Below, one piece after another: positions 6,831 through 40,053 of a DNA stretch of 64,000 nt. This stretch comes from Sipunculus nudus (lineage: Eukaryota; Annelida; Sipuncula; Golfingiida; Sipunculidae). A program made the translations under genes and the position numbers. The stretch spans positions 43,415,079 through 43,479,078 of the forward strand of contig CM049309.1 of the NCBI GenBank assembly GCA_026874595.1. The letters run 5' to 3'. Numbering within the stretch: the stretch's first letter is position 1; the number at the start of each line of letters is the position of its first letter. A model generated the notes under the pieces. That model had not been told where the DNA came from. It was given only the letters and a program-made list of their open reading frames with translations, and did no database searches.

Positions 6831-6914
<84 letters not shown>

Positions 6915-15900: not shown

Positions 15901-16296
15901 AAGCACCAACCAGGAGAAAAACTGCTCGTTTCAAGCAGTGACACTGTCATCACATCAGCATTATCCTGTCACGACAAAAAAAACAAGAACGTTCAAATAG
16001 CTGCATGTTCCGTGATGTTGAACATGGCGGTGTCCTTTCGTAACTCTCCAGACATAGAGGCTAAATCTCAGTGTTTATCGGCAGCCATGACTATGATGAA
16101 CACCACTACAGAACCAGAAGCAGTGTTTAGGTTACTTGTGTGTGTTGGGACATTGGTATGGGAAGACTTGAATAGCATGGAGCTTGCCAAATCTCTTGGT
16201 GTAATGACACATTTAGTGAAATGTAGATCAGTGTCAGATCCAAAGAAAGTCAGCGAATGTGCTTCAGCAGTTATTTCAGTTCTCAATTCTTCATAA
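2437..16296 (+). CDS. PLAA: PLAA, phospholipase A2-activating protein (Doa1/Ufd3 family), 12 exons
   Basis: Joined exons are 2437-2576, 6447-6637, 7273-7374, 7977-8096, 8439-8742, 9130-9290, 10202-10359, 11334-11550, 12101-12244, 12437-12553, 13205-13351 and 15722-16296. They total 2,376 nt, 791 residues plus TAA, close to the roughly 795 of vertebrate PLAA. Every junction is GT-AG and keeps frame. Order: WD40 propeller (about 1-295), PFU domain (about 345-445), linker with three DPFTG repeats (about 460-515), PUL domain (about 531-790). PLAA is a cytosolic ubiquitin-binding adaptor of p97/Cdc48; WD40 and PFU bind ubiquitin and PUL, an Armadillo-like fold, binds the p97 C terminus. It works in ubiquitin homeostasis, endosomal sorting and clearance of damaged organelles. 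The old name reflects early phospholipase A2 reports. The ATG at 2437 has A at -3 and G at +4 and opens directly into the first WD40 blade. I saw no frameshift or lost domain. Confidence 0.96.
3464..3879. mobile_element. Short inverted-repeat (MITE-like) element
   Basis: The left end (GGTGCATTATCGGGGCTGAA) is matched in reverse complement by the right end near 3840-3879 (GGTGCATAATATGGGGTTGA), and the match continues for about 55 bp through a shared AACCCACATTTT block. The interior repeats the block AATGTGGGTTCA several times. No coding capacity. A target-site duplication was not clear. Confidence 0.65.
4168..5016 (+). mobile_element. Possible solo LTR (weak)
   Basis: The segment starts TGTTGAGGGA and ends GGCCGTGACA, giving TG...CA termini about 850 bp apart, and differs in composition from the flanking intron. 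Without a matching second LTR or a visible target duplication this is only a suggestion. Confidence 0.25.
6447..6637 (+). CDS. PLAA: PLAA exon 2 (WD40 blade 2)
   Basis: Acceptor TTTACAG, donor GTTAAT. Residues 47-110, with the segment [10 protein letters not shown] followed by [17 protein letters not shown], which matches the second blade of PLAA. It completes the split Asp codon from exon 1 and ends with one base of the next codon. Confidence 0.93.
6834..6911. repeat. (AT)n microsatellite
   Basis: About 39 uninterrupted AT units in PLAA intron 2. Open frames read through it as IYIYIY only because of the repeat. Confidence 0.98.
7273..7374 (+). CDS. PLAA: PLAA exon 3 (WD40 blade 3)
   Basis: Acceptor TTGCAG, donor GTGAGC. 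Contains [15 protein letters not shown], the strand C and D signature of blade 3. Both ends are phase 1. Confidence 0.93.
7977..8096 (+). CDS. PLAA: PLAA exon 4 (WD40 blade 4)
   Basis: Acceptor TTCCAG, donor GTACAA. Encodes [20 protein letters not shown] followed by SADKTIKMW, a complete blade. Both ends are phase 1, so the exon is a symmetric blade-sized unit. Confidence 0.93.
8439..8742 (+). CDS. PLAA: PLAA exon 5 (WD40 blades 5-7)
   Basis: Acceptor ATCTACAG, donor GTAAAC. Encodes about 101 residues with [32 protein letters not shown] and GEDRSLRVW, near-identical in pattern to vertebrate PLAA, and runs into the last blade. It ends with two bases of a codon completed in exon 6. Confidence 0.94.
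9130..9290 (+). CDS. PLAA: PLAA exon 6 (end of propeller, acidic linker)
   Basis: Acceptor ATTATGTAG, donor [26 protein letters not shown] closes the propeller and enters a charged helix, followed by [15 protein letters not shown], a conserved PLAA linker motif. A similar acceptor-like sequence lies 39 bp upstream (see findings). Confidence 0.93.
10202..10359 (+). CDS. PLAA: PLAA exon 7 (PFU domain, first half)
   Basis: Acceptor TTTGTAAAG, donor GTTAGT. Encodes [35 protein letters not shown] and [10 protein letters not shown]. This is the core of the PLAA family ubiquitin-binding (PFU) domain, including the WxxxxGRWxKIGDVVG pattern. It ends on a whole codon, the only phase-0 junction in the gene. 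Confidence 0.95.
10710..11046. mobile_element. MITE family A, copy 1 (PLAA intron 7)
   Basis: Terminal inverted repeats: left GGCCAAAAAAAATTAAAGGT then ATGGTTCTCAGGCA; right TGCCTGAGAACCAT then ACCTTTTTTTTATTTTGGCC. The ends are flanked by TTA on both sides (10707-10709 and 11047-11049). About 337 bp with no ORF. Two related copies lie at 21435 and 50395. Confidence 0.85.
11334..11550 (+). CDS. PLAA: PLAA exon 8 (PFU domain end, first DPFTG repeat)
   Basis: Acceptor TTGAAG, donor GTCAGT. Encodes [29 protein letters not shown] and [16 protein letters not shown], the C-terminal half of PFU. It ends inside the Gly codon of the first DPFTG motif. Confidence 0.94.
12101..12244 (+). CDS. PLAA: PLAA exon 9 (DPFTG linker)
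   Basis: Acceptor TATTTCAG, donor GTAATT. Gly/Ser/Thr-rich linker with [14 protein letters not shown] in the middle and ADPFT at the end, so it holds the second DPFTG motif and most of the third. Vertebrate PLAA has the same three-motif linker between PFU and PUL. Confidence 0.93.
12437..12553 (+). CDS. PLAA: PLAA exon 10 (linker into PUL domain)
   Basis: Acceptor TTCACCAG, donor [15 protein letters not shown] ends the linker; [16 protein letters not shown] corresponds to the FPKK-FDxAN motif that opens the PUL domain. Confidence 0.92.
13205..13351 (+). CDS. PLAA: PLAA exon 11 (PUL domain)
   Basis: Acceptor TTTCCCAG, donor [19 protein letters not shown], then [17 protein letters not shown], the first PUL helices. 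Compared with vertebrate PLAA the loop between these helices looks several residues shorter. A decayed partial copy of the end of this exon lies near 14260-14325. Confidence 0.92.
14262..14326 (+). pseudogene. Decayed partial copy of PLAA exon 11 and its donor site
   Basis: The stretch AGTGCAAGCCCACAGCACAA matches GTGCCAGCCCCACAGCACAG in exon 11. Further on, TGCTGCTAAGTACCTAACA matches CGCTGGTAAGTACCTGACA at the exon 11 donor. The GT donor has become CT, so the copy could not splice normally. It sits in intron 11, about 950 bp downstream of the true exon. Confidence 0.5.
14895..15415. repeat. Dispersed mollusc-type repeat in PLAA intron 11
   Basis: Begins with CATATGACGGGAGTATTATG followed by a CTGTCCGTCTGTCC block and ends near GGCGTATTATGCAAGTTTTC. 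The interior repeats the phrase 'gataac...gattttcataaaactcac' several times. This arrangement is typical of a dispersed repeat of bivalve genomes. No ORF. Confidence 0.5.
15722..16296 (+). CDS. PLAA: PLAA exon 12 (most of PUL domain, stop)
   Basis: Acceptor TTTTTGTAG; ends in TAA at 16294. Encodes about 191 residues including [55 protein letters not shown] and [10 protein letters not shown], ordered as in vertebrate PLAA. This is the six-repeat Armadillo-like surface that binds the p97 C-terminal tail. Confidence 0.96.
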
Positions 16297-21434: not shown

Positions 21435-21725
21435 AGGCCAAAAAAAGGTATGGTTCTCAGGTACTGTTTTTCATAAATCAGTGTGTGCGGGAGATATTTT
21501 ATTTTTTTTAACCTTTTTTTTGTATGTTTCGATAAAAATGTCATATGATCAGGGTAAAGCATGAAAATAACAGAATTTTTTTTGCTAAACAGGTAAAAGC
21601 AATACACAACAAGGAAATCTGATCAAAATTGTATTATTTTTCTTCTTAAAAAATTTTGATGCGGGGGGTTAAAAATGACGCGGCCGGCGCCTGAGAACCA
21701 TACCTTTAATTTTTTTATTTGCCTT
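21435..21725. mobile_element. MITE family A, copy 2
   Basis: Left end AGGCCAAAAAAAGGTATGGT then TCTCAGG; right end GCCTGAGAACCATACCTTTA and onward to TTTGCCTT. The interior matches copy 1 in the opposite orientation (TTTTTGTATGTTTCGATAAA against its complement). About 290 bp and flanked by TA. Confidence 0.82.
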
Positions 21726-22847
21726 AACCAGATCACTGCCGACACACGGGGAAACTTCTTGTAAATTGATATTCCAAATGAAAAGGGGCTTATGTTCGAA
21801 CATATCCGATACCATTCGATTAATTTCATATAACTCCATATAACTTGAAAATTAAATGAAATCTTGTTATTTACAATGCAAATGGGTCTTGACTATTTTA
21901 AGGTATATGCTGAATATGATAAATAAAATGTTTAAAAAGATGTATTGAATTTCAAAATTTATTCATTTACTACTAAACTATTATAGAGGGCATTATCATT
22001 CGATCCTAACAATAGAGGAAAAGACCATTGTAGTCTCGTAAATTACAGTGTTATAATAACCAAGTCTAAGGTTTCCTTGGACTGTTATTTCTAGCTCATT
22101 TGTAGGGCTTCTGATATATAAGATAACCATAATTTTGACGTCCATTTCTGCTTTTTATTTTGAAACCACAGAAATATGATATTAATGAAGCCATTCAGAA
22201 AGTGTAAACATTTGTGATATGAAACCTTATCTGTCCTGTCCCAACAAGGGAATTGAAAAAGATATCATATTATATAAAGTATACCGTGCTACATCGTAGC
22301 GTGCCTAGTTTATGATAAACCTACAACATATAACTAACGTTCTGAATGACTAAAGCAGGATTGCAAGTTATGAAGAGCATTTTAAAATACCAAATCAGAC
22401 TTCATTGAGCTCTACAAAATATCAAAATTATGTAAAATCCGTGTAATGCATTACAATATTTTCACACAAATTTCTTAAAACAAGTATTAAAAAAAATATG
22501 TCTAGTAAAATTCTTGGGTTTAGGTTAGTTTTTTTTGTCCTGCTTGGTCCTACTGTCTGCAGGTTCTTTTTTTTTTGCCAATTTCGAGCCCTGTTAACGA
22601 ATGTAAATATAAGAGGGCAGGATGAGGTGAATGGCGAGGAAACAGATGCCATCTTCTTGAACAAATATAACAAATATGTTCAAATTGGTTGCGTCACCTT
22701 CAAGTCCAATAAACGGACAAATGTTCCCATCGTTCATGTTTCGTTCCCGCCAAGCTGAAGGATTAACATGAAACGCACTAATTATATTAAAAGTATTACA
22801 ATTTCTTCAAGAACAAAACATTTCCAAAATATGACGTCATGCTTTGG
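21726..22847. other. Intergenic DNA between the convergent genes
   Basis: AT-rich and without recognised domains. It would contain the 3' UTR of the minus-strand receptor; I could not choose a convincing poly(A) signal for it. Confidence 0.4.
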
Positions 22848-23271
22848 TCACACTATAACATGCGGAAATGCATTGTAATCGTCAGTTAAGTTAATCCGGA
22901 GTGCGCGTGGAACATAATCGTTTGTGTTCGTGCTAAGACCTTCCATTGTTATGTAGTCGCCACCATTGCTGGTTAATGCGTGGCTGGCAGTGGTCCCTGA
23001 CGCAGCATTTGCCTTCACAAACGTCACAGACACAGATCCCTCTGATTGGCCATCTGAATTTTTGGAGGGATTACACTCTGGCGCTAGTTTTGTCTTTGTT
23101 GGGTAGTGATGTTTGGGAAGCGATTTGTAGGTGACGTTATACAGACAGCTGGTGTGAGACCGTGTGGAACTTTCCATCATGGGCTTGGTAAGGCTTCTGG
23201 AAATGGTAGCATACGTAGCATCATCTTCGGTGATCAACGTGCCAGTACTTCTTGTCTCGTCTTTTGGATCC
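22848..23271 (-). CDS. Receptor exon 6: cytoplasmic tail with ITIM and YxxM
   Basis: Acceptor TAATTACAG. Encodes 140 residues after a split Gly and ends TGA at 22848-22850. Seven tyrosines: 440 (TYATI), 464 (LYNV), 468 (VTYKSL, full ITIM consensus), 476, 526 (DYITM, a PI3-kinase p85-type YxxM), 539 (DYVP) and 552. The last residues HVIV fit a class II PDZ ligand. No enzyme domain. Phosphotyrosine signalling is inferred from motifs only. Confidence 0.83.
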
Positions 23272-23749
23272 CTGTAATTACAGATACTGTTACTGGCACG
23301 TACATATTCAGGGGCGGATACAGAAGCTTAGAAAAGAGAAGGCTCAACAACTTGGGACAGGAAAACAAATGGGAGAGCCAGAAGACATTATACGTAACTC
23401 TCACATTTAAAGATGAAGGAAAGGAAACTCCAGGGGGATGCCGCACCCCTCCATCCGACTTTGCAATTATAAAAAGTTAAATTATAGAAAAAAATATAGA
23501 CTAAAAATAGATATGAAAATAGCAGTCATATTTACTTCAAGCTTCATTACTTTGCGCCTTCATATGCAGGTAACAAACTGTTCCTCTCGTTTTCAGGCTT
23601 AAATTTTATGTATGAAAGTAGGTTGATTTATATATAGCCTAATGTATGTGCAATCCTTGGCAAGTCCCACTCTCTACTAAACAGATGTTGGGTAGGAAAC
23701 GTCGGGGGGGGGGGGGGGGGGAGGGGGGATGCTGCAGGGTTTGATTTTG

Positions 23750-23820
<71 letters not shown>

Positions 23821-23922
23821 TTCCTTGGCCAGTTCTACTCGAGTGAAAAGATTTATAGCAGGAAACTAATGAAAAGATGTAGAGCAGGAAACGTCAGTGG
23901 GGTACCGCAGGGGTCTATTATT

Positions 23923-23979
<57 letters not shown>

Positions 23980-26900
23980 TGGCTACGCCCCTGCCGGAAA
24001 CGATGCAAGACGCTAAATCAGGCGTACTTTTGTGATGGTAATTCTATTGTATGTTATACTATTTCCCAGATTTTATAGAAGCGGACCTCTTTTTCATCTC
24101 TTTTTAAGGGTTACAGACAAAATTATGAGGCCTGGATCCCTCCCCCTTTTTCGCGACCTGGAGACATTTCTTTAGTGTTTCAATGAGTCCTCCTTGGTTG
24201 GACCCCCCCCCTCCCCCCCCCCCCCCCTCTTCCTTTATCCTGTTTTAGGTCGTAGAAGAGGGCCTGATATTAACCGGGGTAAATGACTCACGTGAAGAAC
24301 AATGAAGCTAATATGTATGAAAAGGTAGCGTGAAAAGAATGCAAGAATAATGCTTCAACAGACCGTTATAATATGTAACGATCCTACTGAGCAAGTCAGC
24401 AGCTGAGTGAATTAAAGGAATGTTATTCAAATATCAACATATAATTACGCAGTTATTTTATACTCTTAAAAGAAATTTTTGATGACCCAGGGGTAATTTT
24501 TAGAACTGGATGATTATACGTACCCAACTCCTCTTCTACGGAACACCACAAACACTGCCACTGCCAGAAGAAGCAAGCCACCTGTCAGGACCAGTGGAAC
24601 CACGATTGCCACGGCAAGTGCTGAAAAGTTAAAAATAAAAACTACCGTTACAAACCTGCATCGTTAATGGATATATTTAACCTATCCTATTCGGAAAAAC
24701 TGACATTAAACTGGCATTCAAAGCCATGTAATTGACAGTAACTGCATGTTTTGAAATTTAACGATTTGCATGACGATTATGCCCGGCCACTGATAACATG
24801 ACCTTGATTGCAAGAAGCGTTTTAAGTTTTCCGATATTTAAATACTAATAAAATAATTAAAAGAGCTTAAGTCAGATATGTCATATATGTTATCATCATA
24901 TAGTACAACAGATTGTCAGTGAAACTGGCTTTTAACCTGTCAAAGGGCCATTTGTGAGTTTCAGAGGAATGAGAAAAAGGGTTAGATAACTAACACCTCG
25001 AGATCTTGGATCAGAGAAAAGGCACAACTACAGTCAAGGCCTTAAGTAAGTTGACAGAAAGTCTGATTATTCGAAATGAGTGGTCTACTCTACCATTAAT
25101 GCATGGAATGCTATATATCTTGATGTAAATACACGACAGAGTGACGGCCGGAGACAACGTGAGACGAGATGTCCGGTTGTTTGTTGATCTGTCTGGTTTA
25201 TGCTACCAATTACTCCGCTGTTACCAGCAATCAGGTTGTTCAACCTGGTGGCGGGTCTCGTTGAACAATAACAGGAAGATTTAGGATAAAAATTCTACTC
25301 AAACACGTTATGTTTAAAAATGTTGTAGTATGACTTTTCGGTAATATGAGATATGCAGGATAAAAAAACTTTAATGTGCAAACATTTATCTTAAACCTCG
25401 TTACACGCGAGAATCAATAGTACGCAGTTCGCTTGTACCGGCAATATTGTGTTCTGAGTAAATGTATATCAGGGCTCATATTATAGACTATAAAACATAT
25501 ATCAAACCGCGAAAGCCCTTTCTTGGCTCGCTGCTATATCTGGAACCTATTAGTGAATAACCAGGAGTAATGCCTCTGGTCTCATATAATCTCTTATTAC
25601 ATTTACCACTTCTACTCCGTCCACTAAGGGTCTAGGTCAGCAGTGCTCAGGGGCGGACTTTAAAGGGGGGGGGGGTCGGAGAGGGCGGTCCCCCCCCCCC
25701 CTTCTTTCGACCTAACCCAAAAAACCTGGGAAAACCTCATAGTACTCCGAGTGTATACAGCGGTTACAATATATGTCTTTTTTCATAATGCATTTAAGCG
25801 ACCCCAGATAACACGATCACAACCTAAGCGGCCTCGCAAAGTAAGCCCCCCCCCCCCCCCCATTCTAAATTCTTATATCCGTCCCATTATTCCTTATTAT
25901 TAATCCTTCAGTAACTGGCAATCCGGCGGATAGGTGCAATAACGGATCAAAGGGGGGGTGGGGGGGGGGGGGGGGGGGAGGATGCCGTCCTTTTTTCACC
26001 CTCCGTAACCTTTTGATTAAGGTTTCAGACTAATTTTAGCAGGCTGGACTTTTTTAGGTCTTGTCATTAGTCCTCCCGGTTTGGACCCCTCCTTTTCCTA
26101 AATCCTGGATCTGCTCCTTGAATGTCCACGGTGACTCCGCTTAACCTCGGCTTAAGTGCATGCAGGTGTAAGCAGCAAATCAATGTTCAGTAGCAGGCTT
26201 TCGCTACTTATGTGTATTAATTTGCCAGGAGCAACGAATATGTCCATGTAAGTCAGGGTAGTGGTCTAGACATCAAGAAGAACACCTGTGCGCAGGGCTG
26301 GTCATAATTGTCCGGATGACGCGAGCTTTTGTCTTGTTTTTATTTATATATTTTCGGTATATTGTCGTATTTTCGGAATACTGCTGTATAATTAACGACA
26401 ATTAAACGTATACATTTGGTTCGCCAAAGAACGGTAAAATGGGGCTTGTAGAACTGGTAGGTGATATCTAATACTTATAAAAGGAATTCGGTTCACGTTT
26501 GTGCGTAATGTTCTCTAAAACCGCGTTGTGTACAATATTGTGCCATACATCAATTAAAAGGTTATTATCCCGGCAATGACATAGGCGATATAAATAATTT
26601 TTAATATACATATAATTTTGAGTGATTTTTCCGTTTTTATACCGAGCACAGCCGAAGTGCCTTCGGCAATCACCGGAAAGCGGGCATCGTGGTCACTTAA
26701 CCTCTAACACTAAGGACTATTGTTCATATGAATAACGCTTGCTTTCAATGAGGGATTTGACCCACGTGCGTGGTCAGTAAAAGAGAAAAACACGTGTCTC
26801 GCTTTATGAAATGGAGAGTTCAACCCAGGAGGATTAATGACAAAACCTAATTCAAGGTCCCAATTTCAAGAACAGTGCTGGAGTGGGGTGATGTTGGGTG

Positions 26901-27545
26901 GTGGCGGGAGTTTCAGGCCTCAAAATTTGTCTGATACGATGAAAAAATGATTGCGGTGGCTGATAATGGGATACGGACACACTGCATGGAGTCCCGCTGG
27001 GTCCGCTTCTGCTACTTACGATGTGTGCATATTTCTGTTTCCTTCTTCAGGAACAGTTTCCTTTAACGTACATTTAATTAATCTTTCATGTGTTCCTCTC
27101 ATCAACCTATTCTTTAAACGTCCAACGATAGAAACCAGTCAAAAATCAACAAAACACTGTATCCCTCCGCGTCTCATTCCGGTTCGCAATGTAAACCATG
27201 ACTGACCAGGTCTTCAAGGTAAACATATACTGGGGTATGATTTTTGCCATGGGCACAGTGCCACAAAATAACAGTAAAACATATTTGTACATATCGTATT
27301 CCGAGAGTATCCCACTAAAAATCTATATTTTCTTTTCACTTTTATAATAAAAAATGAGCCAACATTCAAAATCTCAGTAAATGTATCTCCCAAACCCCGT
27401 TAAGCCCGGTATACCGGGTTTATCAGCTAGTATGTATATAAAGTCAGTTTGTACCTGAGGAGTGGGCCGGCTGGTAAGCTGAACTCACGAAACAGTACTG
27501 TAGTACATTATGAAATCAAGCTAACTATACAAATAGTATAATATT

Positions 27546-27592
<47 letters not shown>

Positions 27593-30500
27593 ATAATATA
27601 ATGAAACAGGGAACTGACATGTTCTTATTCTACGTAAATATTCTTTTACCATAAGTTGGATATAAGGACTTTAATCCATCCATACCTTTTAATATATTTT
27701 GTACATACAAAAGAGACGTAAAACAAATCGAGTTTTAACTTCGGTTTACGAAGAGATCGTAGCGATTAGTAGACATAAGACTGGACACATTATAAAAAAA
27801 TCTAATGTCTTGAACATTAGTTGGCGGCAATGAAAGGAGGAAAATCAAATGGGGTGGCCCAAAATCTTTAGTTTTTTTTTAAGGATCTACGGCTTAGACC
27901 CACATCTGAGCCATTCGTAGTGTTCCCCGATGAGCTGACAATAAATGATAGGCCATTTATACTGATAGGCCATGCATTGATTCATATAGGTAGGCCATTC
28001 ATACGGGTGCGGATGCAGGTAGAAACCTGTCCTATTAAAATTAAATGGACTACGTCCATTTTTCGGTGCGGAGTGTGGTCTGACGTACGGCCGTGGATAC
28101 GGTTTAGCCAACCGGATCATGTAGCGGTACGTATATCGAAACTCCTACAGAAACGTAAAGGGAAACGTGCAAACAGGCACATAACCTTACGTACCGTATT
28201 GACATTTCAGCCCTTATTACATCTGCTCAAGTTTCATTCCAGCTGATGCCAACATTTTATGATTAACATGATAATGTGTTTAAATCATGCAGCAGAGATT
28301 TATAAATGCAGCCATTTTTCTCCACCAAATTGTCATTCCTCTACGAGATCGTTGTATGCTCCCCTTGCTATGTTTTTTCTTGTGTTTTAATAACGTTGTT
28401 TTCTTTAGTTGTTTATATCACTGTAGTCTGTACGTAAGCTGCAGCGTTTATAATCTTTTCCTTATGGTGCAGAAGTTGTAATCTTGATTTGCTGGGTGCC
28501 AGGTTAAAGAGGTGAAAGACATTAAACCGCACTAAGAAACGTGTAAATGGATACAAATAGTGACCGCATCCGCATGGACCGTATCCGAACCGCGTCCGTA
28601 CAAGTGGACACGTAGCCCCTAAGAATGAACTCCTCAATTGCTTTTTCTTAGTGACTGACGCATTGTGGAGTCCATAGATTGCACCCGCAGTTAACTGTGA
28701 TTATAACACTCCATACACAACTGTGAGATTTAACATATATCCATTGATTAATGTTCAGTACATCTATGTGTATTGTATATTTGACCACTGGAAAACATTA
28801 ATGTTCTGTTTTCAGCCCTATTTTGCACCAAGGAAGTTAAAATATGAACACAATAGTACACAGGCCTAAAGCCTTATACAGGACTGCCACCAAATGCAAG
28901 ATGTCTACGGGGCTGTTAATGCTACAATTCTCTCTGGACAAATACTATCAGTTGCTGATGTTACATGTGCTTCATGCTATCCAGAATGGTTATTTTTTAT
29001 TACAGGCCTTTCGACATACAATATTATGTGAACATTGGTTTGTTAAAACCATAGGAAATATTTTTATTTAATTTCCTTTCTATGAGTAACAGATCGTATC
29101 GTGCTATAACCTCAGTTAGCCCTTTGGTGGGCCGGCGACGCAACAGAAACTGGAAACCTGTTGCGTCGCCGTCGGCGGCTAGTGGACACGTAGCTTCACA
29201 CAGCAAGTTTCTGCAAGTTTGCCCGGTAGCGTGTTGGCGTGTCCCGTTCCGACCGCTTTCCGCGCTAAAACTCCTGGCTAAAGTCTTTACCACAAGGGTG
29301 CGCTCTCTCCACTAAGGACTGAATTGATATACTGCTAATGGGCGGCAGATAAGTACTAAATGAACAACCTTATAGTGCCTATCATGGCTGCATGGGTTGT
29401 AGATTCCGCAGAGGGGCGACGAAAGAGAGTTAAATCCCCGAAAGCCTAGAAAGGTGAAGTTCGATGATATGAGACTATAAACACACTCTTTTCTTGTTTA
29501 TTAGAGATATATAGTTCTCTCTATGTTTAGGGTTGCAAATAAATGCATAACTTTAAAATAAAGTAATATAACGCAAAAGATATTTTCTTTTTATTTTGTC
29601 TGTATTAACATAGGCTACGCATGTATCGGCTTTACTACATGGGCATGCCCCGTGATCATCTGAAGTCCGGACTGGCTGCTTCTCTTGTTGACGATGGCCT
29701 TGAGGCTTTAGCTTTCTGCCTTTAATTCTGTCTCACCAGGAGACAAACCACGGTTCACTGGATGCCGCTGATAATTCGAAACGATATAATTCTTCTGTTT
29801 TAACTCGTAGAGAAGCCGTTATCAGTTCCACAAGGACCAATTAAGGGTTGAAGTAAGTCATCTAAAACTTTAAAGGATTTTCCAACCTTTATGGCAGGAT
29901 GGAGAGATCACAAGGATAAGTACACCACAGGATATGATACCCGCTGGATAGCCGGAAGGAAGATCATCGTACAGGGATATATCCGCTGCTTATTCGCTAC
30001 AAATCAATCGTTAGCGAATTGGTTTCAACGGTCCTGTTTATCTGTGGCATCAGTAACAAGGAGCTAATCCTCGTCTGCGGCTTGACAGCTCCAGCTGCTT
30101 TACAGTACGCTGGTTTCTATGGAGTTTCCATGGTAGTACATATTAGAGTACGAACTGCAGTACCCACTCGGATGTTAGCCGCCCCGACAGATCGTTAGAC
30201 TGTGTGCTGCAGCGCTTGAACGACGACACAAGGTAAGTTAAACATGCAGCTTTAAGCTTGATTTAGGCATACGTAATGCTGTATGTAAAAGGAAACATTG
30301 GGTAGGGCGTCAGGGGCGGATCCAGGTTTAGGAAAAAAAAGGGGGGGGGGGGGGGTCCATTCCATGAAGATTAATGACAAGGCCTAAAAAAAGCCCCCCA
30401 GGTCCGGAAACGGGGGTCCAGGCCGCCAAAATCGGCCTGAAACCGTTAAAAAAGGTTGCGGCGGCTGAAAAATGAGGGGTCTGGACCTCCCTCCCCCTGT

Positions 30501-33500
30501 TACCGCTTTTGGGCTCTTTTCTGGATTAAAGGTCCCAGGTTCAGTCCCCGCCAAAGAAACAGCTGAGCATCTTTATGTTTCATATACTATCTAATCCATG
30601 CATATCTGCGGCTTGGCAAATTCCACTGTCTGTACTGCCTAACAAATGGAAGTTTTAATCAAAATGTTATATAACATATGGATGTTTAAATGTGTTCCCA
30701 TCTCAACTAAAATTAAAACATAAAACATGTAAAAACATATCGTATCCGATCGGTCTTGGTCTATACGCCCGTATGTTAAAGCTTATATATAGTAACGGGG
30801 AGTAAACAAAAATAAAAATATATGTGATTAACGACAATCGAGCCTGTATGATCATTGTGTCAGATTCTTTCACGGGCACTTTGACTTGAGCAGATGAAAA
30901 TAGCGAAGCCGACAGCTAGTACATATATGCTACATAGTGCTATATATGTAATAGATAGCATGTTATTTCCACATGCAGCTGCTCGTGATTTATGGTTATG
31001 GAAGATTAAGGTTGAAGGTTTTGAATTATGTACGAGTTTATTATTGCTATTGATCTAAAAATGATAAGTCAGAATATTATTTTCGTATTATCTTACCGTA
31101 ATTTAGCTCTCACAGAGGAGATATTTAAAGGTTCTTATTCATTTCCAATAACATGTGTATTATCCCACGTTATTTGCTCATTTTGAATTAAACCATCGTT
31201 CCCATCAAAACCATCCCGGCTCACGGGCTAAAAATCACCAGTTCATCTGTATAACACGTTGTTATGGTTCTTTGAGTCTACATGTGTCTGTTTAGCATAA
31301 AAAGGCTGCGTGACTTGCGCACTCGCGACAATTCCGAAACAAGGAGAAGAGACATGAAAGAAGAAACGCCGAAGAAACACCGGTTGGAAGCTTGAATAAA
31401 CTTGATTTGCTCGGTACGGCCACCCGGTGGCGTGCGCGCTACATCTATGTTTTGAGCCATAGATCGCGCCCAGTGCCAGCTTTTTGCCTATTCTGTACAG
31501 GAGGAAGCAAACGAGCAGGATATTTACATATGCCGTAATATTTTAAGGAGAATATACTCAATCTCATGTATATTTATCATACTTGGTATATGTGAACATA
31601 GGTCCCTTTAAAGGTTAACCCAGTCTGGTCTTTTCTTCATTTTATTCATTCAATTTCAACAATGATTCAATATATTTTTTTTTGTTCACAAATGTGCCAA
31701 TCACTCAGATGTGAATTTAGACGTAGACAATTAAATCCTGATTAAGAAACGTATGATGTCATATTTTCATATTATTATTTGTTAACGTGTTAAATAATTT
31801 CAGTTAAATGTAAACACTGAGAAGTACATGTTGCAGCAAGGTTAAGACTCGAGAAGGCATAGATTTTTATCCTGGTCATGGATTATATTGTGACACATTT
31901 GGTTGAAACAGTGATTTAACAACTCAGTAGGTATTTAAATGAGCCCGACCCCGTTTAGTGTGTGGCACTCTACATGCAAGTGTTAGGGAATTTCAAGGCA
32001 CAAAATCCTCAAGAAAATTGCTCATAAATTTTAAGTTCCTTAATTAATTTACATATTTCCCCCTAACATATATGTTCCAGAAGTTTTGTTATGATACGTA
32101 GGAGTTACAATTCAGTAATTACTGGGATTTGTCAACCATGACTGTGTTCAATCCTCCTGATATAAAACCATTGATTGTAAACACTCACTTGTCGTTTCAC
32201 CAAATGTAATCAGCCATCATTCTGATAAATATCAGATCTTATTGGCAGCGATTCGTGATTAAGGTTAGGAGACACATTGAGGATCTATTGAGAGAATCTA
32301 ATGATTTATCACAGAAAATGAAGGCCTATATGTGCAAGATACAAAAAACACTGAAAGGTCCGTCCAGATGTTTAAAACTTGCTTATTTAATACAGGACAG
32401 TGTATAAGAATTAAGCTTTATTTGCTTATAATATAACCAGGATTTTTTTCTGTCAAGCAGGATTTGGCGATAGGTTTTAGCCAGGGATATCGTGGAGTCC
32501 TTATGAGTCTTGTGTCCACATGTTCGAAATGCAGAGACGATAGTATACAAACCCAACCCTCAACCGACACCCAAGGATGATAGCGCAACTCTGGTTATAG
32601 GAAAACAATTAATTATGGTCATATAATGGTCACTCTCTTGGGGAGAAGCATGTGTCGTTCCAGTATATCCAGTGTAATGCCCTTTAACAAGAGCCGAGAC
32701 AAGACGAGAGAGGAGCAATGGAGGTTCGACACATATAGAGTCTCAAGGCTGATGTACCTCTTCAGCAATGCCGTCAATTTATCTTTCAGAGTGGGGGAGG
32801 TATGATTTGTAGACACACACACCCGGATTTCATATATATATACTTCATCATATTTCAAATATATTACAATTAAGTATAAGGTTTTTGAAAATAACGTATT
32901 ATATTTCAAGGAAATGTTAATTATAATTCTATAATATTTCATATAGTAAACTCATAAATGGAACCAAAGTAAGTATTAGATTTTATAAAATAACGTATTA
33001 TATTTCCAGGAAATGTTAATGATAATTCTATAATATTTCATAGAGTATACTCATAAATGTAACCAAAGGCTCTAATTCTATTTATTACTATATTTCATTT
33101 GTAATATACATGTAAAAATAATGTTCTCAGAGTAGTAGGGGGGATTATTACATATACCACCCCCTCCCCCCCCCCCCCTTGCCAGAAGGTGGGGGGTGGG
33201 GATATATACCATACCACCATCCACCTATATTGACGCCCCTGTTTGACAGGAAGAGATACGCATCGGAGATATTCGTTAACAGTAAGGAGCTCGTGTAAAT
33301 GTGTAAAGATGATATCTTCGCATTGGTGCTTAGAAGAGTCTGGCACCTTCATCACAAGATATACATTAATAAAACGAAGGAAAATAATTCAATTACCTGG
33401 CTGATCTTTTGACTTCCCAGCTGTGGTCGGGGTGTCACCTCTGGGGTCTGCAGTGCGTACCTCTAAACTGTATCTTACTGAAGATGAAATAACACCGTTA

Positions 33501-36500
33501 ACCCCCTTTGAAACGAAAGGTGTCATAACGTTTTGTTCGGTCCTCGAAAAAGTCTTAAACCTTTCCATGGTACTACCTATGGCTGTTGACCCTGGGGTGA
33601 ATGTAGCGTCCGTTTCCTGAATACCTGACCCCGATAAGGACATGAACGTTTGAGTCGTCTGACCGAGGCGGTCTGGGTTCGTCAGCGTCTGAATTTCCCG
33701 AGAGAAAGGTTTTGTTTTAACTTGGTCGGCTGAGTGTGTAACTTTAACGTTTTCATGTCTTGTCAGTTCCGATGTTGGTGTTGTAACAGATGTTTTTACC
33801 ATCAAAGAGGTGGCTGCATTCTCTCGGGGAGAACTTGGTGGATGCCCTCCAAACCCTGACGCTGAGGACGCCGTTAAGGACGACCTGTCCTGGTCTGGGG
33901 GAAGCGAGGGCAGTGCTGTGGAACCAAGATTACGGTCCTTTGATGTCTCAGTGGAATGTTCCGAAAATCCCGATGCAGATGTTTTGAATGTTCTCACTTG
34001 CGGAGTTCTGGAAATTTTGTTTTTAATACTTGATGTTTTTAAAGTGACAGGGTACAGGCTTGTCGTCTCTAAGCGGACGTCTGTTGAAGTTGAAGTTTGT
34101 TCACTGCTGACGGTTCTTGGGGCAGAAGTGCTCGTTTCTGTCGAAGAAAATCCAGTATCAGTATTTTTTCCTCATTGTGATTTAGGTCGGTAAAGTGAAT
34201 CACCGTATAACAATTAAAATACGATTGATTTCCGCATCCTAATACTTTCAATTAACGGTCTTGAGATGAAATCAAATGTTCAGTATATGTCTTCATTGAA
34301 TCATAATACCTGTATATATTTAACATGTAATACCCTCTGCATGCGTGTGGTTGTTAAAAAACAATTCACTAAATTTTGTTTGGGAATATTATTTTTTATA
34401 TAAAAGAGCTAGAATGTAACGGAAATTATTACTTCGCTTAATTGGGCAAAGTAAAATGTGTTATGTTTATTACACATAATTTATGTAATGGGTCTTCGTT
34501 ATAGAGTCATTTGTTTGTTAAGCAAACACGTATTTGATTGAAAATAGCAGTCATCGTTTCTTTAATTACCTCTCATGATACAGGCTATGAGTGAACCTCC
34601 CCAAAATCCGTCAGCCTGGCAAATCCGTACACTATCACCAAATAGTCGATAATCTTTGGAGCATGCGCATATCGCACGTCCCTTATATAGAGTACTCGTC
34701 CAGTTGCAGAATCCGTGCGGAGGAAAATCTGGCGTGCCGCAGTCAACAGCTGGATGAAAAAGTGGAATGTGATTAGAAACATTAAAGAGAAAGATTGATT
34801 TTCGTGAGATTTTAAACTGTACTGTTTAAAATGTAACATTTATTATGCCTGCAAGCACATGGAATAATTATTTTGTTCATTCACTTATGATCAATATCAT
34901 TATTGGTAAATAAACCACCGTGACCTGGAAAACTTTTCAGCGGAGTATAAATTATCTTCAACATTGTCGTTTTGTGTTTAGTTACATCAGCATACACTTA
35001 ACGTCTGTTCTAGCATCGTCTTATTACCGCTTTAACCACAAAGCTCGTTTGGGTCATCTGCCATACCTGAAAAGAGATTTCATAGATACGTTTTCTACAA
35101 GACCAGAAAAGCATATGTACTATATGTATACATAAAAAAAAACTGCTGGCTCGGCCCAAAAAGTCCAACTCGGCCGCGCGTCAGATTTTTACTGGGCAGT
35201 AATGATAGCTCCTTATTATATCAAACCAAATGTTGGGAGACATTTAGGAGAAACAGTTGTCATCTAAAGTTTAAAAGTTTTATGGAAATAGCTATCATTG
35301 GTAGTCCTCCTTGCTGACAGAAATAAACAAGATGGTAATTGGTGACGGGGTATTGCTGATCATCACTGGACACAAATAGGATATAAGTAAATAGTTATAG
35401 GCTGCAGAAGATCTAAATCATGTTGATTGGACTAATACATCAGATGCTAAAAGCTGTGATAATATAGCTCAGATGTTATACGATGTGCTGCCAAAGTAAT
35501 TTGTTGTTACACAAGTTGAAACGTTTTATGTATACATTATAAGGATGTTTTTATTTAGTTTAAAATATATAAAAGAAACACAACCTCTGATTACTAAGAT
35601 ATTCTTTTATTCAATTACATGATATATCATTTTGGTTTATTCTCCGCACAAACAAAGAAAATCTAAATGGGTCAAGTCTTGGCAAAACTATTCAGAGCGA
35701 AGCTGCAGTTCGTAGAAGTCATTGTTTGAAACAACTCTGTGAAGAAGATTCCTGATGAATCCAACTCAGACAGAAAAAGATGTCCCGCTGGGGGCCTAAC
35801 AAGGGACCGCCAGCACTAAATTGATACCGGTCACCGGACGGAAGGCATGATCCTGGCAGGGCCCAGGCGACAACATCACAGTCTAATTAGGTATCGGCCC
35901 ATGGAGATGCGCCGTCATACTAAAGATAAACCTGACTTTTGACTATGCTACTTAAAGGGAAGCCGACCTAAAGCCAGGTATCGACCAACGCTAAAAGAAG
36001 TCTCGTCTGGCCACGCTATCAATCATGTGACGCCAATTTATTAGCGGACTTTTGGAGGGCCCGACCACCCCGGCATGCTTTGTCTGTTGTTCGTGGACCC
36101 GGTTTTTTATACAAATTATAGGTCCCATTGGAGGTCATTAAACGATATCACGCAGGGAGCGGCTGGTGACGCGGAGGACCTAGGGAGAGAGTTGATAATA
36201 TCCTTTGATATGAGCCATACGCGCTTTTAGGACCCAGCAACAGGTCATTCAAGACTTAATCAGAAGTGTATTAGTCCCAAAGAAACACACATTCAGTGCT
36301 TGAACAGAAGTCAAGAAAACGATCTAGCTAATATTTCTGATAAACAAGGGTTAAGGAAGATGTAAGGTTTTAACTGTCTCGTTATATGAAGAATTCTAAA
36401 GCAAGCGACAAAATCGTAATAACTCTTTCCATGGAGGTATTCTAACTCAACGCTCTTTTATAAAACGCTTTTGACATTAAACCATCCGTGGTATTGAAAT

Positions 36501-38427
36501 ATTATGCTTATGAATTTTTTTTTGTACAGCTTAATCTTATAACTCGGAAATACCATACCTATGAGTACACGTATTTAAAGAATAATCCATTTATTACTAC
36601 TACTAAAGCAGTTTCTCCAGTTTGATGGGACAACCATGACTGTAAAAAGGACGTTTAAAGTCATATTCACAAATATCCATGTCAGATTGGACAAGTGTGA
36701 TTATAACGCGGGATTGTGCAATCGGCAAGGATGTTTGTCTTATAACAACACGAAGTCATGAAATACTGGCAATCATAGACTAAATTTTATCAATGGGAAT
36801 TTAGAACAATCGTGACTGCGTAAAATATACGAGTCTCGGCTGCCTTTAATATCATGAGCGTTTCATCATCTCGTGGTTTTGCAAATGCAAAATCTGGCCT
36901 GCTTGCGTGTTGTAACCTTTTTGATTATAACAAATTTGGCTCATTTTTTTGTTTATACAACAAATAGGCCTGAAGCCACCATGAACATTTTAAACTTACG
37001 AGTGCATGGGACAGTGCTTATGTTATCCCAGGATCCTCCGCTGCACCAGACGATACCGGAAGTTTGTGACGTCAACGTGTACCCTTCAACACATCCGAGG
37101 ACCACAAACTCTTGTTCCTTGAGGAATAAGACTTTCATCAGCTCTGGGACAATGACGTCACGGCTCGTGCACGCTGATCTGACTGAAAAAGTATCAATTA
37201 TTAATTATGAAATGTGATATTCCCTTTTCTCGTTTCCAGGGGAGATTTGAAGAATAGTGGAGGGGTATCATGTAGCCAAGACGCGCAGCCGAGGGTGTGT
37301 GTACAGAAGGTTTACATTAACTTTCTTTATTTTACTCTGTTTACAAATGATGAAAAATAACCGCGGCTGTTATCCGCCCCGGGTTTTTAATGTTAAATGT
37401 ACACTTGCGGATTAAAAGACCAGCCCTACATTTTTTTTTTATATCTGGGGGTTATCTGCCATGAAATAACAGGGTGGACTCGGGATTTAGGAAAAGAAGG
37501 GGTCCAATCCAGGAAGACTAATGACGAAACATAAAAAAGGTGCCCAGGTACGGAAATGGTGGTGGGTGGGTGGGTGGGGGGGGGGGGGGTTCAGGGCCCA
37601 AAAATTGGTCTGGGTGTTGTCCGGACCCCCCCCCCCCCCCCCGATCCGCTTCTGAACAACGCTTCTGAACTTAGATGATACTCCAGAAGCAAACGTGTAT
37701 GCTGCACGTTTGTGTAATCGTCATACCGGAAAAACTGCGATGTATTCACCTCGAAAATGAATTTCGCACCTTCACATTTTCTAATCCTCATTACCCTCAC
37801 ATTTATCGACGTAGTTTATTGTTAACGTATTACAGGGTTGCTATGTTTGCTTTAAAGGTGCCCCTTCACCTACCTTTGAAAAAAAAGAATTTATGTGATT
37901 TCTGGTTTCCTCTGTGTATATATTAATGATCTAAGAGTTGTTCTGGTTATGAAAAGATCTTATAACGCCTCTGTGAAAGATTTATGGACTTGTTTATCAA
38001 CAACGTGTATGTAAACACAGCAATGTTGGCAAATGGAAAAATATGTAACCTAAGGTGGAAAGGTCACTTGTTACAATAAGCTCTGGCTTATCTGACTTGC
38101 TGCTTGATGCCCTTGTTGAATTTGTTTTGATTATTTTTGCGGGCCCCCACATATTATAAACACGTTAATATATACAAATTAAGCAGCCTGTGTGCGGTGA
38201 AATCCAAGTTTTCTGGCCTATTTTTATAAAAACTCTAAGTAATTACCTTTAGTATATAAATGTCAGATAGGTGATATGGCCCCTTAAGAGAAATTCGGAT
38301 GCTTTTTATAATCATATACGTTCGATCTATGCAGGACGGACGACGCAGTGCTTGACTTACCTTCGTTCAACATGGCCAGTATTAAAGTACCAAAAACGGC
38401 CTGCCAGGAAAAATGCATGGTTAACAT
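22848..38427 (-). CDS. Predicted Sushi-mucin-ITIM type I membrane receptor, 6 exons
   Basis: Joined minus-strand exons are 38427-38361, 37182-37000, 34749-34570, 34137-33397, 24620-24524 and 23271-22848. They give 560 residues from the ATG at 38418 (563 from the in-frame ATG at 38427); numbering uses 38418. All junctions are GT-AG and phases agree. Order: signal peptide (1-19), Sushi/CCP 1 (21-80), Sushi 2 (82-140), Ser/Thr-rich stalk without cysteine (141-387), membrane helix (about 388-413) ending in RRR, cytoplasmic tail (414-560) with an ITIM at Tyr468 and YxxM at Tyr526. Sushi modules bind complement, cytokines or glycans; ITIMs recruit SH2 phosphatases such as SHP. I infer a surface receptor, possibly inhibitory. 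Named orthologue not recognised. An extra exon inside the 8.8-kb intron cannot be excluded, though phases join directly. Confidence 0.78.
23309..23993. mobile_element. hAT-like short element(s) with internal (TA)n duplication
   Basis: Left edge CAGGGGCGGATACAG at 23309 and right edge CTGGCTACGCCCCTG ending at 23993 look like hAT-type termini. The interior holds a diverged duplication: 'ccttggc(a/c)agt...aggaaacgtc' at about 23656 and 23825, each unit ending in a (TA)n tract (23750-23817 and 23926-23975). No transposase. It may be two nested elements. It starts about 37 bp from the acceptor of the receptor tail exon. Confidence 0.5.
23704..23721. repeat. Poly-G run
   Basis: 18 consecutive G residues, followed by a G-rich stretch. 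Assembly length here is uncertain. Confidence 0.95.
24090..24260. repeat. GGATCC/C-run repeat fragment (hAT-like family, reverse orientation)
   Basis: Contains GGCCTGGATCCCTCCCCC, 'caatgagtcctcc...ttggacccccc' and a long C-rich run (about 24204-24227). The same words appear in complement at 30311 and 37470. Confidence 0.5.
24524..24620 (-). CDS. Receptor exon 5: transmembrane segment
   Basis: Acceptor CTTTTCAG, donor GTACGT. Encodes [20 protein letters not shown] then VAVFVVF followed by RRRGVG: a 25-residue hydrophobic helix and a basic stop-transfer signal, giving an outside-in topology. It joins the stalk in phase 1 and the tail in phase 2. Too short (97 nt) for a long-ORF scan. Confidence 0.85.
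25645..26120. mobile_element. hAT-like non-autonomous element, G/C-run type
   Basis: Left edge CAGGGGCGGACTTTAAAGGG; right edge near TCCTAAATCCTGGATCTGCT. Several poly-G and poly-C runs lie inside (25668-25675, 25691-25700, 25846-25861, 25952-25978). Possibly two overlapping copies. Confidence 0.5.
26815..27015. repeat. Diverged copy of the GGGGCGGATCC element family
   Basis: Shares 'caacccaggaggattaatgac', 'aggcctcaaaatttgtctg' and 'ttgcggtggctgataatg' with the copy at 30311. The ends are eroded. Confidence 0.5.
27549..27588. repeat. (TA)n microsatellite
   Basis: About 20 uninterrupted TA units in receptor intron 4. Confidence 0.97.
30311..30540. mobile_element. GGGGCGGATCC element, best-preserved copy
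   Basis: Starts CAGGGGCGGATCCAGGTTTA, then a G run (30341-30355), then 'tccattccatgaagattaatgacaagg', 'ccaaaatcggcctgaaaccg' and 'gcggcggctgaaaaatg'. No ORF. The hAT assignment rests on the CAGGGGCGGATCC terminus only. Confidence 0.55.
33130..33245. repeat. G/C-run element fragment
   Basis: Contains C-rich and G-rich runs (33162-33178 and 33188-33199) and ends TTGACGCCCCTG, the complement of CAGGGGCGTCAA, an hAT-type edge. It lies within 150 bp of the stalk exon. Confidence 0.45.
33397..34137 (-). CDS. Receptor exon 4: Ser/Thr-rich mucin-like stalk
   Basis: Acceptor TTCTTCGACAG (branch-like CTGAT just upstream), donor GTAATT, phase 1-1. It encodes about 246 residues, roughly a third Ser or Thr, with Pro and no Cys, for example [20 protein letters not shown] and [11 protein letters not shown]. 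No hydrophobic segment or domain. The composition suggests an extended O-glycosylated stem. The first 46 codons lie upstream of any ATG-like start but stay open and in phase with the Sushi 2 exon. Confidence 0.83.
34570..34749 (-). CDS. Receptor exon 3: Sushi/CCP domain 2
   Basis: Acceptor TTCATCCAG, donor GTAATT, phase 1-1. It begins [13 protein letters not shown], continues [20 protein letters not shown] with the conserved Trp next, and ends ACIMR. Six cysteines (84, 95, 108, 110, 124, 137): four fit the Sushi positions and two (95, 108) are extra. Sequon NWT at 96. Confidence 0.87.
34750..36999 (-). other. Receptor intron 2
   Basis: AT-rich, except for a region of balanced composition at about 35700-36240. 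No exon with Sushi spacing was found in it. Confidence 0.5.
37000..37182 (-). CDS. Receptor exon 2: Sushi/CCP domain 1
   Basis: Acceptor CTTTTTCAG, donor GTAAGT, phase 1 at both ends as is usual for single-module Sushi exons. Sixty whole codons. Cysteines at 24, 50, 66 and 79 with GCVEGYTL, then WCSGGSWDN before the last Cys: the Sushi pattern of four cysteines and a Trp between Cys3 and Cys4. N-glycosylation sequon NIS at about residue 73. Confidence 0.85.
37460..37655. mobile_element. GGGGCGGATCC element copy (receptor intron 1)
   Basis: Reads 'gactcgggatttaggaaaag...ggggtccaatccagg' then GGTGGGTGGGTGG and a G run, then a C run and CGATCCGCTTCTG at the right edge. Same family as 30311. Confidence 0.55.
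37909..38286. repeat. Family B dispersed repeat, copy 1 (about 375 bp)
   Basis: Matches 42565-43080 plus 44354-44462 along its length. Shared blocks include CTTGCTGCTTGATGCCCTTG, TTGAATTTGTTTTGA and CTGTGTGCGGTGAAAT. No inverted ends seen; class unknown. Confidence 0.75.
38361..38427 (-). CDS. Receptor exon 1: signal peptide
   Basis: From the ATG at 38418 it reads [19 protein letters not shown], a typical signal peptide with hydrophobic core [11 protein letters not shown] second in-frame ATG at 38427 adds MLT. An in-frame TAG a few codons upstream bounds the start. Donor is GTAAGT (phase 1), completed as Val by the Sushi exon. A TATA box lies about 80 bp upstream. The exon is too short to show as a long ORF, but signal peptide, phase and promoter agree. 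Confidence 0.78.
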
Positions 38428-38462
38428 TATACAAACATTGTGGCACTATCAGAACGTTGCAT
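38427..38462 (-). promoter_or_regulatory. Upstream ORF in receptor 5' UTR
   Basis: An ATG at 38462 opens 11 codons ending in TAA. The last A of that stop is also the first A of the ATG at 38427 (TAATG). Lying perhaps 15 nt from the cap it may often be skipped. Its role is inferred. Confidence 0.4.
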
Positions 38463-38502
38463 GACTCTGTTTCTTCAAATCATGAATCATGAACAGTTGC
38501 CG

Positions 38503-38510
38503 TTTATATA
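38503..38510 (-). promoter_or_regulatory. TATA box of the receptor gene
   Basis: TATATAAA on the minus strand, 76 bp upstream of the ATG at 38427. With usual spacing the cap site would be near 38475, leaving a 5' UTR of about 50 nt. Confidence 0.6.
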
Positions 38511-39384
38511 CTGGTTATCCATATCATATTCTCAACACATCAGATCTACAAAATATCCAAATATCCATGGTTGTGGCCTTGTCGTTAAACCAGGAGAGTT
38601 CTATGAAAAGAGCCTAGCTGCTTGTGTTCATATATAGATATATATGCTGTATGGATAACCAGTTTCATCGCACACAAAATCTGTACCAGTATAAAGATGA
38701 TTTAATCGGGCTTATGAGAGGGATCGCCCTATTCATGTCTATGCCCTGAGACTTCCGTAGAGCAAATAAGCGTGTATTCAGACGCACCAAGGGGGTCATC
38801 CACTGTGGCCTTATTCACATATCGGGTAGGACGACACGGTCACTATAACATACGGGGCGTGCTACTGAATGTTCGCAAACAGAACAGGACCATAGCTGCA
38901 CACAGATTTTCCTGACACCGAATGAATATTAGTGAATATACACGTATACATAGTTGTGTGAAAATGTGGAACATTTACAATGGATGCTTATGAAAATATC
39001 TACTATTTACAGATGTGTGTATTTAGTGGTGAAAGTGTGATCTTGATTACATACACGTACAGAAAATGATCCCCTGTACGTCTGTATGTCCAGGTCCATT
39101 TTATACTGATATGATAATTATTACTTTTTATTCCACATGTGACTTAAGAGCAAAATGAGTCTTACAGTACATTTTCTTTATTCAAGGAATAACTTCCACC
39201 CTTCAACCTTAGGGGTGTGTTTAGCAGTTTCAACAGTATCGTCCTTGCATGTGTCAAGTCATTCGAACAATTAAGTGAATAAGCATAAATAGTTTTCTGT
39301 GTGACATATACAAGCCACCGTAGAAAACAGACCACAGACATTCTTGTCCTAATGAGGGCTTGACCTTGCATAGCATACTTACGC
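38511..39384. other. DNA upstream of the receptor promoter, no gene seen
   Basis: Mixed composition, no repeat or domain recognised. It may hold receptor regulatory sequence because the gene starts just to the left. Confidence 0.4.
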
Positions 39385-39560
39385 GTGCGCACAGGTGAGA
39401 ACGAGATACTGACGCGTTGGAACGAGATAAGTATCCCGTGGAAACGAGATACTTTTGCGTAAGAACGAGATAATTATCGCGTGGGAACGAGATACTATCG
39501 CGTGGGAACGCCATAATTATCGCGTGGCCACGCGAAAAAAAATCGCGTGGATTCAAGATA
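39385..39560. repeat. Short tandem repeat, 'gcgtgggaacgagata' words
   Basis: GAACGAGATA occurs repeatedly, separated by variants of 'attatcgcgtgg', with a unit of about 25 bp in six to seven imperfect copies. The long minus-strand ORF over this region reads the repeat (SRDN, FPRD words) and is not a gene. Confidence 0.75.
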
Positions 39561-40053
39561 AAAAAAATTTCTGTGTGTCCTATACGAGTCACCGTAGGAA
39601 TACATGTAACTCTCACTAAAATTTGTGTACCTTTTGTGTACACAGTTGTGTACATGTATACCTTCCATACCTTCAAAATTGCAGGACCTACTACGTGAAC
39701 CAAATATTGTTTAAAGTCACAACAAATGTGAAAGGTTGTGGTTCGAGGGAGGACAGATGAACCATATGACCTTAGTCTTAATGAAAAGTAGGCTGGCGGC
39801 TCCGGAATCGTCCATATAATCAACAGCGCTTGACACGTCATCTCTCGGCAGACTCTATAGCCGCAGTGTGCATGGTCTCAGAGACCAAAGAGTCAACACG
39901 TTGCGGTGCAGTTACCGGGCCTGTCTGTATGGGTTTACAACGCCATATCTTTTTCCAGTTTACAGGTCAGGAAGCAGCTGCCATCAGATAAACAATCATT
40001 GTTTAGATCCAGTGTATATTCTGGCTCGACAAGGGATAATGTATTAAACTGAT

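What the first reader, a model, noticed from the sequence alone, without database searches (positions are those of the whole stretch)
22848..38427. Undescribed Sushi-Sushi-mucin-TM-ITIM receptor, invisible to simple ORF scans
Six minus-strand exons join in phase into a signal peptide, two CCP modules, a long Ser/Thr stem, one membrane helix and a tyrosine-rich tail. Two exons are under 100 nt. Outside the cell it resembles vertebrate complement regulators (CD46/DAF) or IL-15 receptor alpha; inside it carries an ITIM and a YxxM. Such a combination in a mollusc could be an inhibitory or complement-sensing immune receptor. Architecture is seen directly; function is inference.
Basis: partly seen in the sequence, partly recalled or inferred. 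Interest (0 to 1): 0.78.

Follow-up and report, generated by a model that had tools for sequence, protein, structure and literature searches.

The report
Single-copy two-Sushi tyrosine-tail membrane receptor
Six exons join into a believable cell-surface protein with one sure and one likely Sushi module, a sugar-bearing stalk and a tail with tyrosines, but its claimed inhibitory immune switch is no stronger than chance and its function is untested.

Summary
The six exons are there as described: minus strand 38427-22848, GT-AG at five of five introns, one frame of 563 codons. A coding model trained on other genes of this 1.43-Gb genome picks out exons 2, 3 and 5; exons 4 and 6 stand out only by frame; exon 1 has no such support. 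Exon 3 is a Sushi module (23.4 bits, cut-off 20.7). Exon 2 is only probably one: no Pfam hit, 10.6 bits to a home-made Sushi profile, no fold match. Ser/Thr stem, one helix and tail are confirmed. An ITIM occurs in 24% of shuffled tails and a YxxM in 14%, so 'inhibitory' is unsupported. Genome searches with exons 2 and 6 find only themselves; exon 3's best other match is 41% identical, in a 3975-aa Sushi frame. Closest published design seen: Botryllus fester co-receptors (Ig, Sushi, TM, ITIM/hemITAM tail). Best reading: a type I ligand-binding receptor whose tail tyrosines dock SH2 proteins or the endocytic adaptor. Mollusc origin, transcripts and immune role were not tested.

The parts
38361..38427 (-). 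exon 1: start codon (or the next in-frame ATG at 38418) and proposed signal peptide [22 protein letters not shown]; 67 nt, ends in phase 1
   Evidence: sequence, donor GTAAGT; no coding-model support; no SignalP available
38504..38510 (-). possible TATA box (TATATAA) 83 nt upstream of the start codon
   Evidence: motif scan, one of three TATA matches in 38430-38650; consensus only
37000..37182 (-). exon 2: weak Sushi/CCP-like module 1 (four Cys and Trp in CCP order), symmetric phase 1-1; alternative acceptor 9 nt downstream (37173)
   Evidence: no Pfam hit; fold comparison without match
34570..34749 (-). exon 3: Sushi/CCP module 2 with an extra Cys pair, symmetric phase 1-1
   Evidence: Pfam Sushi 23.4 bits, cut-off 20.7; single-stretch match to MASP-2 CCP, E 6.7e-6; coding model
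33397..34137 (-). exon 4: Ser/Thr-rich, Cys-free stem of about 246 residues, phase 1-1
   Evidence: longest open frame in the window; composition; strand not settled by the coding model alone
24524..24620 (-). exon 5: transmembrane helix and RRR stop-transfer, phase 1 in, 2 out
22848..23271 (-). exon 6: cytoplasmic tail with 7 tyrosines (YATI, YNVT, VTYKSL, YPTK, YITM, YVPR, YNAF) and stop codon
   Evidence: genome search finds only itself
22154..22159 (-). first AATAAA after the stop codon, possible polyadenylation signal (3' UTR about 0.7 kb)
   Evidence: motif scan, first of four in 21503-22850

Best explanation
A gene for a type I membrane receptor, apparently single-copy. Shown: an open reading frame with proper splice signals, one clear and one probable Sushi module, a long Ser/Thr stalk, one helix and a tyrosine-bearing tail. 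Inferred: the stalk is O-glycosylated and holds the two modules away from the membrane; the modules bind a protein or glycan ligand; binding clusters the receptor, Src-type kinases phosphorylate tail tyrosines, and these dock SH2 proteins (YITM suits PI3K, VTYKSL suits a SHP-type phosphatase). Whether the net signal inhibits or activates cannot be said. The four YxxPhi tyrosines may also bind the endocytic adaptor.
For: Gene model: GT-AG and phases. With the first training set, 4 exon-like stretches on the minus strand between 18 and 46 kb score above 6 bits: e2 (from 37173), e3, e5 and 22698-22754 in the 3' UTR. Without the tandem-Sushi frame in training, 5 on the whole minus strand score above 5 bits: the same four and 59509-59585; on the plus strand the same scan finds three WD40 exons of the neighbouring PLAA-like gene, a positive control. 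No candidate above threshold lies in the 8.8-kb intron 4. Sushi homology. One helix plus RRR. 4 of 7 tail tyrosines are Yxx[LIVMF], reached by 2.3% of 20,000 shuffles; an ITIM and a YxxM together by 3.2% (patterns chosen after seeing the tail). Modules on symmetric phase 1-1 exons, the usual form of shuffled extracellular modules (established knowledge).
Against: No transcript was available, so the joins, above all across the 8.8-kb intron 4, are untested, and an exon with a score as low as e4 or e6 would have escaped the scan. No orthologue was found, so no motif is shown to be conserved. Single motifs are at chance level, and only 3 of 7 tyrosines have an acidic residue at -1 or -2 (13% of shuffles). 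Module 1's fold is not confirmed. The coding model was trained on frames that themselves hold Sushi modules and helices; it gives e4 and e6 low absolute scores (-16.0 and 0.8; -40.5 and -11.4) and rates a stretch antisense to e4 at 13.3 bits, the best of that scan.
Confidence: 0.5

Rival explanations
1. Endocytic or scavenger receptor: the tail tyrosines are YxxPhi sorting signals for clathrin adaptor AP-2, and the receptor takes up a ligand rather than signalling.
For: 4 of 7 tyrosines fit Yxx[LIVMF], reached by 2.3% of shuffles; Y443 lies about 20 residues from the membrane, a usual distance (recalled).
Against: A tail of about 146 residues is longer than such a role needs; motifs not tested for conservation.
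Confidence: 0.2
2. Inhibitory (ITIM) immune receptor: VTYKSL recruits a SHP-type phosphatase and damps haemocyte activation, perhaps on sensing complement-like opsonins.
For: One canonical ITIM in the tail. [quoted passage not shown] the paper itself not held). ITIM tails on Sushi-bearing receptors are described in Botryllus (PMC12065747, passages).
Against: 24% of shuffled tails hold an ITIM; a single ITIM is often weak (recalled); immune expression unknown; the search for thioester (C3/TEP) proteins in the genome did not complete.
Confidence: 0.15
3. Membrane complement regulator of the CD46/DAF kind that protects own cells; the tail is incidental.
For: Sushi modules, Ser/Thr stalk and type I anchor recall CD46; exon 3 matches CR2, factor H and CD46 chains among others.
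Against: Two modules, one of them degenerate; the matches are spread over many Sushi proteins; a long tyrosine tail is not needed.
Confidence: 0.08
4. Two genes: a secreted Sushi-Sushi-mucin protein (exons 1-4) and a separate membrane gene (exons 5-6).
For: 8.8-kb intron 4; reading past the exon 4 donor meets a stop after two codons, so a soluble form from retained intron is possible.
Against: Phases agree; exon 5 needs an upstream partner and no candidate above threshold was found between 24.6 and 33.4 kb.
Confidence: 0.07

Closest known systems
Fester co-receptors (FcoR) of Botryllus schlosseri (PMC12065747, passages seen)
   Same: type I, 520-610 aa, signal sequence, Sushi domain, TM, long tail that can carry an ITIM, hemITAM or YxxI/L/V motif
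   Different: FcoRs carry one V and two C2 Ig domains beside the Sushi and form a family of 53 loci in polymorphic haplotypes; no Ser/Thr stalk is mentioned in the passages seen. Here no Ig domain was found and exons 2 and 6 match only themselves in the genome
fester of Botryllus (PMC3549757 passages) and vCRL1 of Ciona (recalled; papers naming it seen only in a listing)
   Same: Sushi module(s) outside, membrane anchored
   Different: fester has three predicted TM exons and, by a passage of PMC12065747, no known signalling domain
CD46/DAF and IL-15 receptor alpha (recalled)
   Same: Sushi module(s), Ser/Thr-rich stalk, type I anchor (DAF has a GPI anchor instead)
   Different: number of modules, tail; no kinship seen beyond the Sushi fold, and no IL-15RA chain in the lists
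Oyster CgIgIT2 (PMC11999971, section 15 read)
   Same: bivalve single-pass receptor with a tyrosine motif, expressed in haemolymph
   Different: five Ig domains and, by that review, an ITAM; no Sushi
Single-pass TM1 proteins of Biomphalaria resistance regions GRC and PTC2 (PMC7494358, passages)
   Same: single-pass membrane proteins of a mollusc with a putative surface recognition role
   Different: clustered and hyperdiverse; PTC2 proteins have no known domain beside the TM segment

Membership tests
Sushi/CCP protein | at least one Sushi module over the curated cut-off | tested here: met
   exon 3 alone 23.4 bits, cut-off 20.7; the whole joined protein scores 16.8, under the cut-off
Sushi/CCP protein | second Sushi module (exon 2) | tested here: inconclusive
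ITIM inhibitory receptor | [SIVL]xYxx[IVL] in the cytoplasmic tail | tested here: met
   VTYKSL at Y471, one site; at chance level, 24% of 20,000 shuffles
ITIM inhibitory receptor | recruits SHP-type phosphatase and inhibits activation | not testable with these tools
   needs biochemistry
Regulators of complement activation (CD46/DAF) | cofactor or decay-accelerating activity on C3 convertase | not testable with these tools
   needs biochemistry
Botryllus FcoR | Ig V and C2 domains beside the Sushi | tested here: not met
   no Ig family up to E 1 in the Pfam scan of the joined protein
Botryllus FcoR | multigene family | tested here: not met
   exons 2 and 6 match only themselves in the genome at E 10 or less; the search scores only the best candidates of a loose first look
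IL-15 receptor alpha | single Sushi that binds IL-15 | not tested
   no IL-15RA chain among the 37 sequences listed or the 48; ligand binding not testable

The most novel reading that the evidence does not exclude
A single-copy invertebrate checkpoint receptor that reads complement-like opsonins through two Sushi modules and answers through an ITIM/PI3K tail: a Sushi-only counterpart of the Ig-based inhibitory receptors.
Probability: 0.1. Interest if true: 0.65.

Novelty: new variant of a known kind. Interest (0 to 1): 0.32.

Why it matters
Sushi receptors with tyrosine tails are known from a tunicate histocompatibility system; a solitary Sushi-stalk-tail receptor in another animal genome would show how readily complement-type modules are wired to tyrosine signalling. 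The gene model is concrete enough to clone. Without expression, orthologues or a ligand it remains one of many single-pass orphan proteins of invertebrates (11% of Biomphalaria glabrata genes are single-pass, PMC7494358, passage).

Tried and rejected
Paralogue cluster: no other match below E 0.48 in the window (tblastn); exons 2 and 6 match only themselves in the genome. Sushi clusters as sister genes: three 10-kb stretches on C5 (L032-L034, three of many places) hold 6, 6 and 4 Sushi-matching open stretches; four hydrophobic stretches and many ITIM-pattern hits came up as well, looked like noncoding sequence by eye, and were not tested further. Exon 4 on the other strand: the coding model prefers an antisense stretch (13.3 bits). 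The antisense run there is 147 codons; 22.8% of 3000 codon-permuted versions of exon 4 have one of 138 or more, so a shadow is no surprise; but the reverse test (permuting the antisense frame) gives a minus-strand run of 164 or more in 27.1%, so these tests do not settle the strand. An earlier test looked at the wrong antisense frame. The antisense frame has no Pfam hit. I keep the minus strand for its length, splice phases and Ser/Thr make-up. A weak TMEM154 hit (18.1 bits, cut-off 30.3) lies over the helix and was not taken as kinship. Relatives elsewhere: tail in genome contigs, 36 pattern matches, 0 relatives (expected for an animal gene in a prokaryote collection); exon 3 in viral contigs, 11 pattern matches, 1 relative matching 17 residues (L035), not followed. 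Rfam and tRNA: 0 hits. Paper searches with sushi + ITIM + mollusc or bivalve: 0 papers; wider ones showed no such mollusc receptor in the titles and abstract starts listed; most subscription papers are not held. One passage of PMC5877582 on Siglecs was seen and not used. The structure of exon 3 never ran.

Full report
Observation. The minus strand holds six exons at the stated place. They splice by GT-AG at five of five introns and keep one frame of 563 codons, with intron phases 1, 1, 1, 1, 2.

Is it a gene? I trained a three-periodic Markov model on long open frames of the same genome and scored splice-bounded open stretches of 36-900 nt. In the region 18-46 kb, minus strand, four distinct stretches pass 6 bits: e2 (with its downstream acceptor, 37173), 22698-22754 in the 3' UTR, e3 and e5. 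Training without the tandem-Sushi frame gives the same four and one more at 59.5 kb above 5 bits on the whole minus strand; on the plus strand it finds three WD40 exons of the neighbouring gene among seven stretches. The training frames contain Sushi modules and helices, so part of this agreement reflects composition. Exons 4 and 6 have low absolute scores, but their true frame exceeds the others by tens of bits (-16.0 against -84.9 and -91.4; 0.8 against -62.0 and -63.1). Exon 1 gets no support. On the opposite strand of exon 4 a stretch scores 13.3 bits, the best of the scan; such shadows are common for this codon make-up (22.8% of 3000 codon permutations reach 138 codons), but the reverse test is no clearer (27.1%), so the strand of exon 4 rests on its length, phases and make-up. 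A TATATAA at 38510 and an AATAAA at 22159 lie where they should, which is weak evidence.

The motif question. VTYKSL fits the ITIM pattern, YITM fits YxxM. Of 20,000 shuffles of the tail, 24% hold at least one ITIM, 14% at least one YxxM, 3.2% at least one of each, and 2.3% at least four Yxx[LIVMF]. The last two hint at a tyrosine-motif tail; they were chosen after seeing the sequence and cannot carry 'inhibitory'.

Kin. In the whole genome (1,426,538,692 bases, 153 contigs) the tail matches only itself (6 of 6 candidates scored), exon 2 only itself (2 of 2), and exon 3 has 103 weaker matches at E 1 or less besides itself (150 of 160 candidates scored), the best 41% identical in a 3975-aa Sushi frame. 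The first look of that search is loose but not exhaustive, so a distant relative could be missed. The genome is rich in Sushi modules: 150 listed, the number scored among 730 candidates. The gene therefore looks solitary, assembled from common parts. The prokaryote collection cannot show animal orthologues.

Function. Established knowledge of Sushi receptors and tyrosine tails supports a ligand-binding type I receptor with SH2 docking or endocytosis; I give the signalling form 0.5 and the inhibitory form 0.15. The design is closest to the Botryllus fester co-receptors, which add Ig domains to a Sushi, TM and ITIM/hemITAM tail (PMC12065747, passages); this gene fails two of their features that I tested (Ig domains, multigene family), so it is not filed there. 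That bivalves use tyrosine-motif receptors is suggested by the oyster IgIT work described and cited in PMC11999971; two primary papers were not held.

Neighbourhood. The plus strand up to about 16.3 kb holds a PLAA-like gene (WD40, PFU, PUL). Beside these and Sushi, the scan of 150 open stretches showed four weak single hits (ODV-E18, zf-FCS, SpoIISA, CoiA; E 4.5e-4 to 2.6e-3), not located; four of its 29 families were not shown.

Noticed in passing
L020-L030 (own genome C8:22.83-22.88 Mb, C9:2.27 Mb, C3:38.26 Mb, C11, C7, C2) and rows: A family of apparently intronless receptors, 553-595 aa in 10 of 11 loci (L020 has 329): Frizzled-like cysteine-rich domain, Sushi, helix and TIR domain. Three of the 11 were scanned: L023 Fz 42.8, Sushi 40.2, TIR 54.4 bits, all over cut-off; L021 TIR and Sushi over, Fz under cut-off; L025 Sushi over, Fz under, TIR not called. 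In one search, 10 of 81 places cover at least 490 of 565 residues, the query included, 8 of them without stops; many of the rest match the TIR part only.
   Followed up: partly
own genome C4:5.900-5.913 Mb (L001, L007 and others): A single open frame of 3975 aa built of tandem Sushi modules, apparently one exon of about 12 kb.
   Followed up: no
own genome C7:2.11-2.31 Mb and C5:26.9-27.2, 36.7-37.1, 50.2-50.5, 52.6 Mb: Large arrays of Sushi matches, several with identical scores, possibly recently duplicated genes; not aligned.
   Followed up: partly
window 6447-16296, + strand: PLAA-like gene (WD40, PFU, PUL domains), convergent neighbour of the receptor.
   Followed up: partly
window 39400-39580, - strand: Repeated short units resembling TATCTCGTTCCCACGCGATAATTA, seen by eye, inside a 207-aa open frame without any Pfam hit; looks like repetitive DNA, not a gene.
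   Followed up: no
window 33389-33397, 34562-34570, 24514-24525, - strand: Reading past the donors of exons 4, 3 and 5 meets a stop after 2, 2 and 3 codons, so intron retention would give soluble or tailless forms.
   Followed up: no
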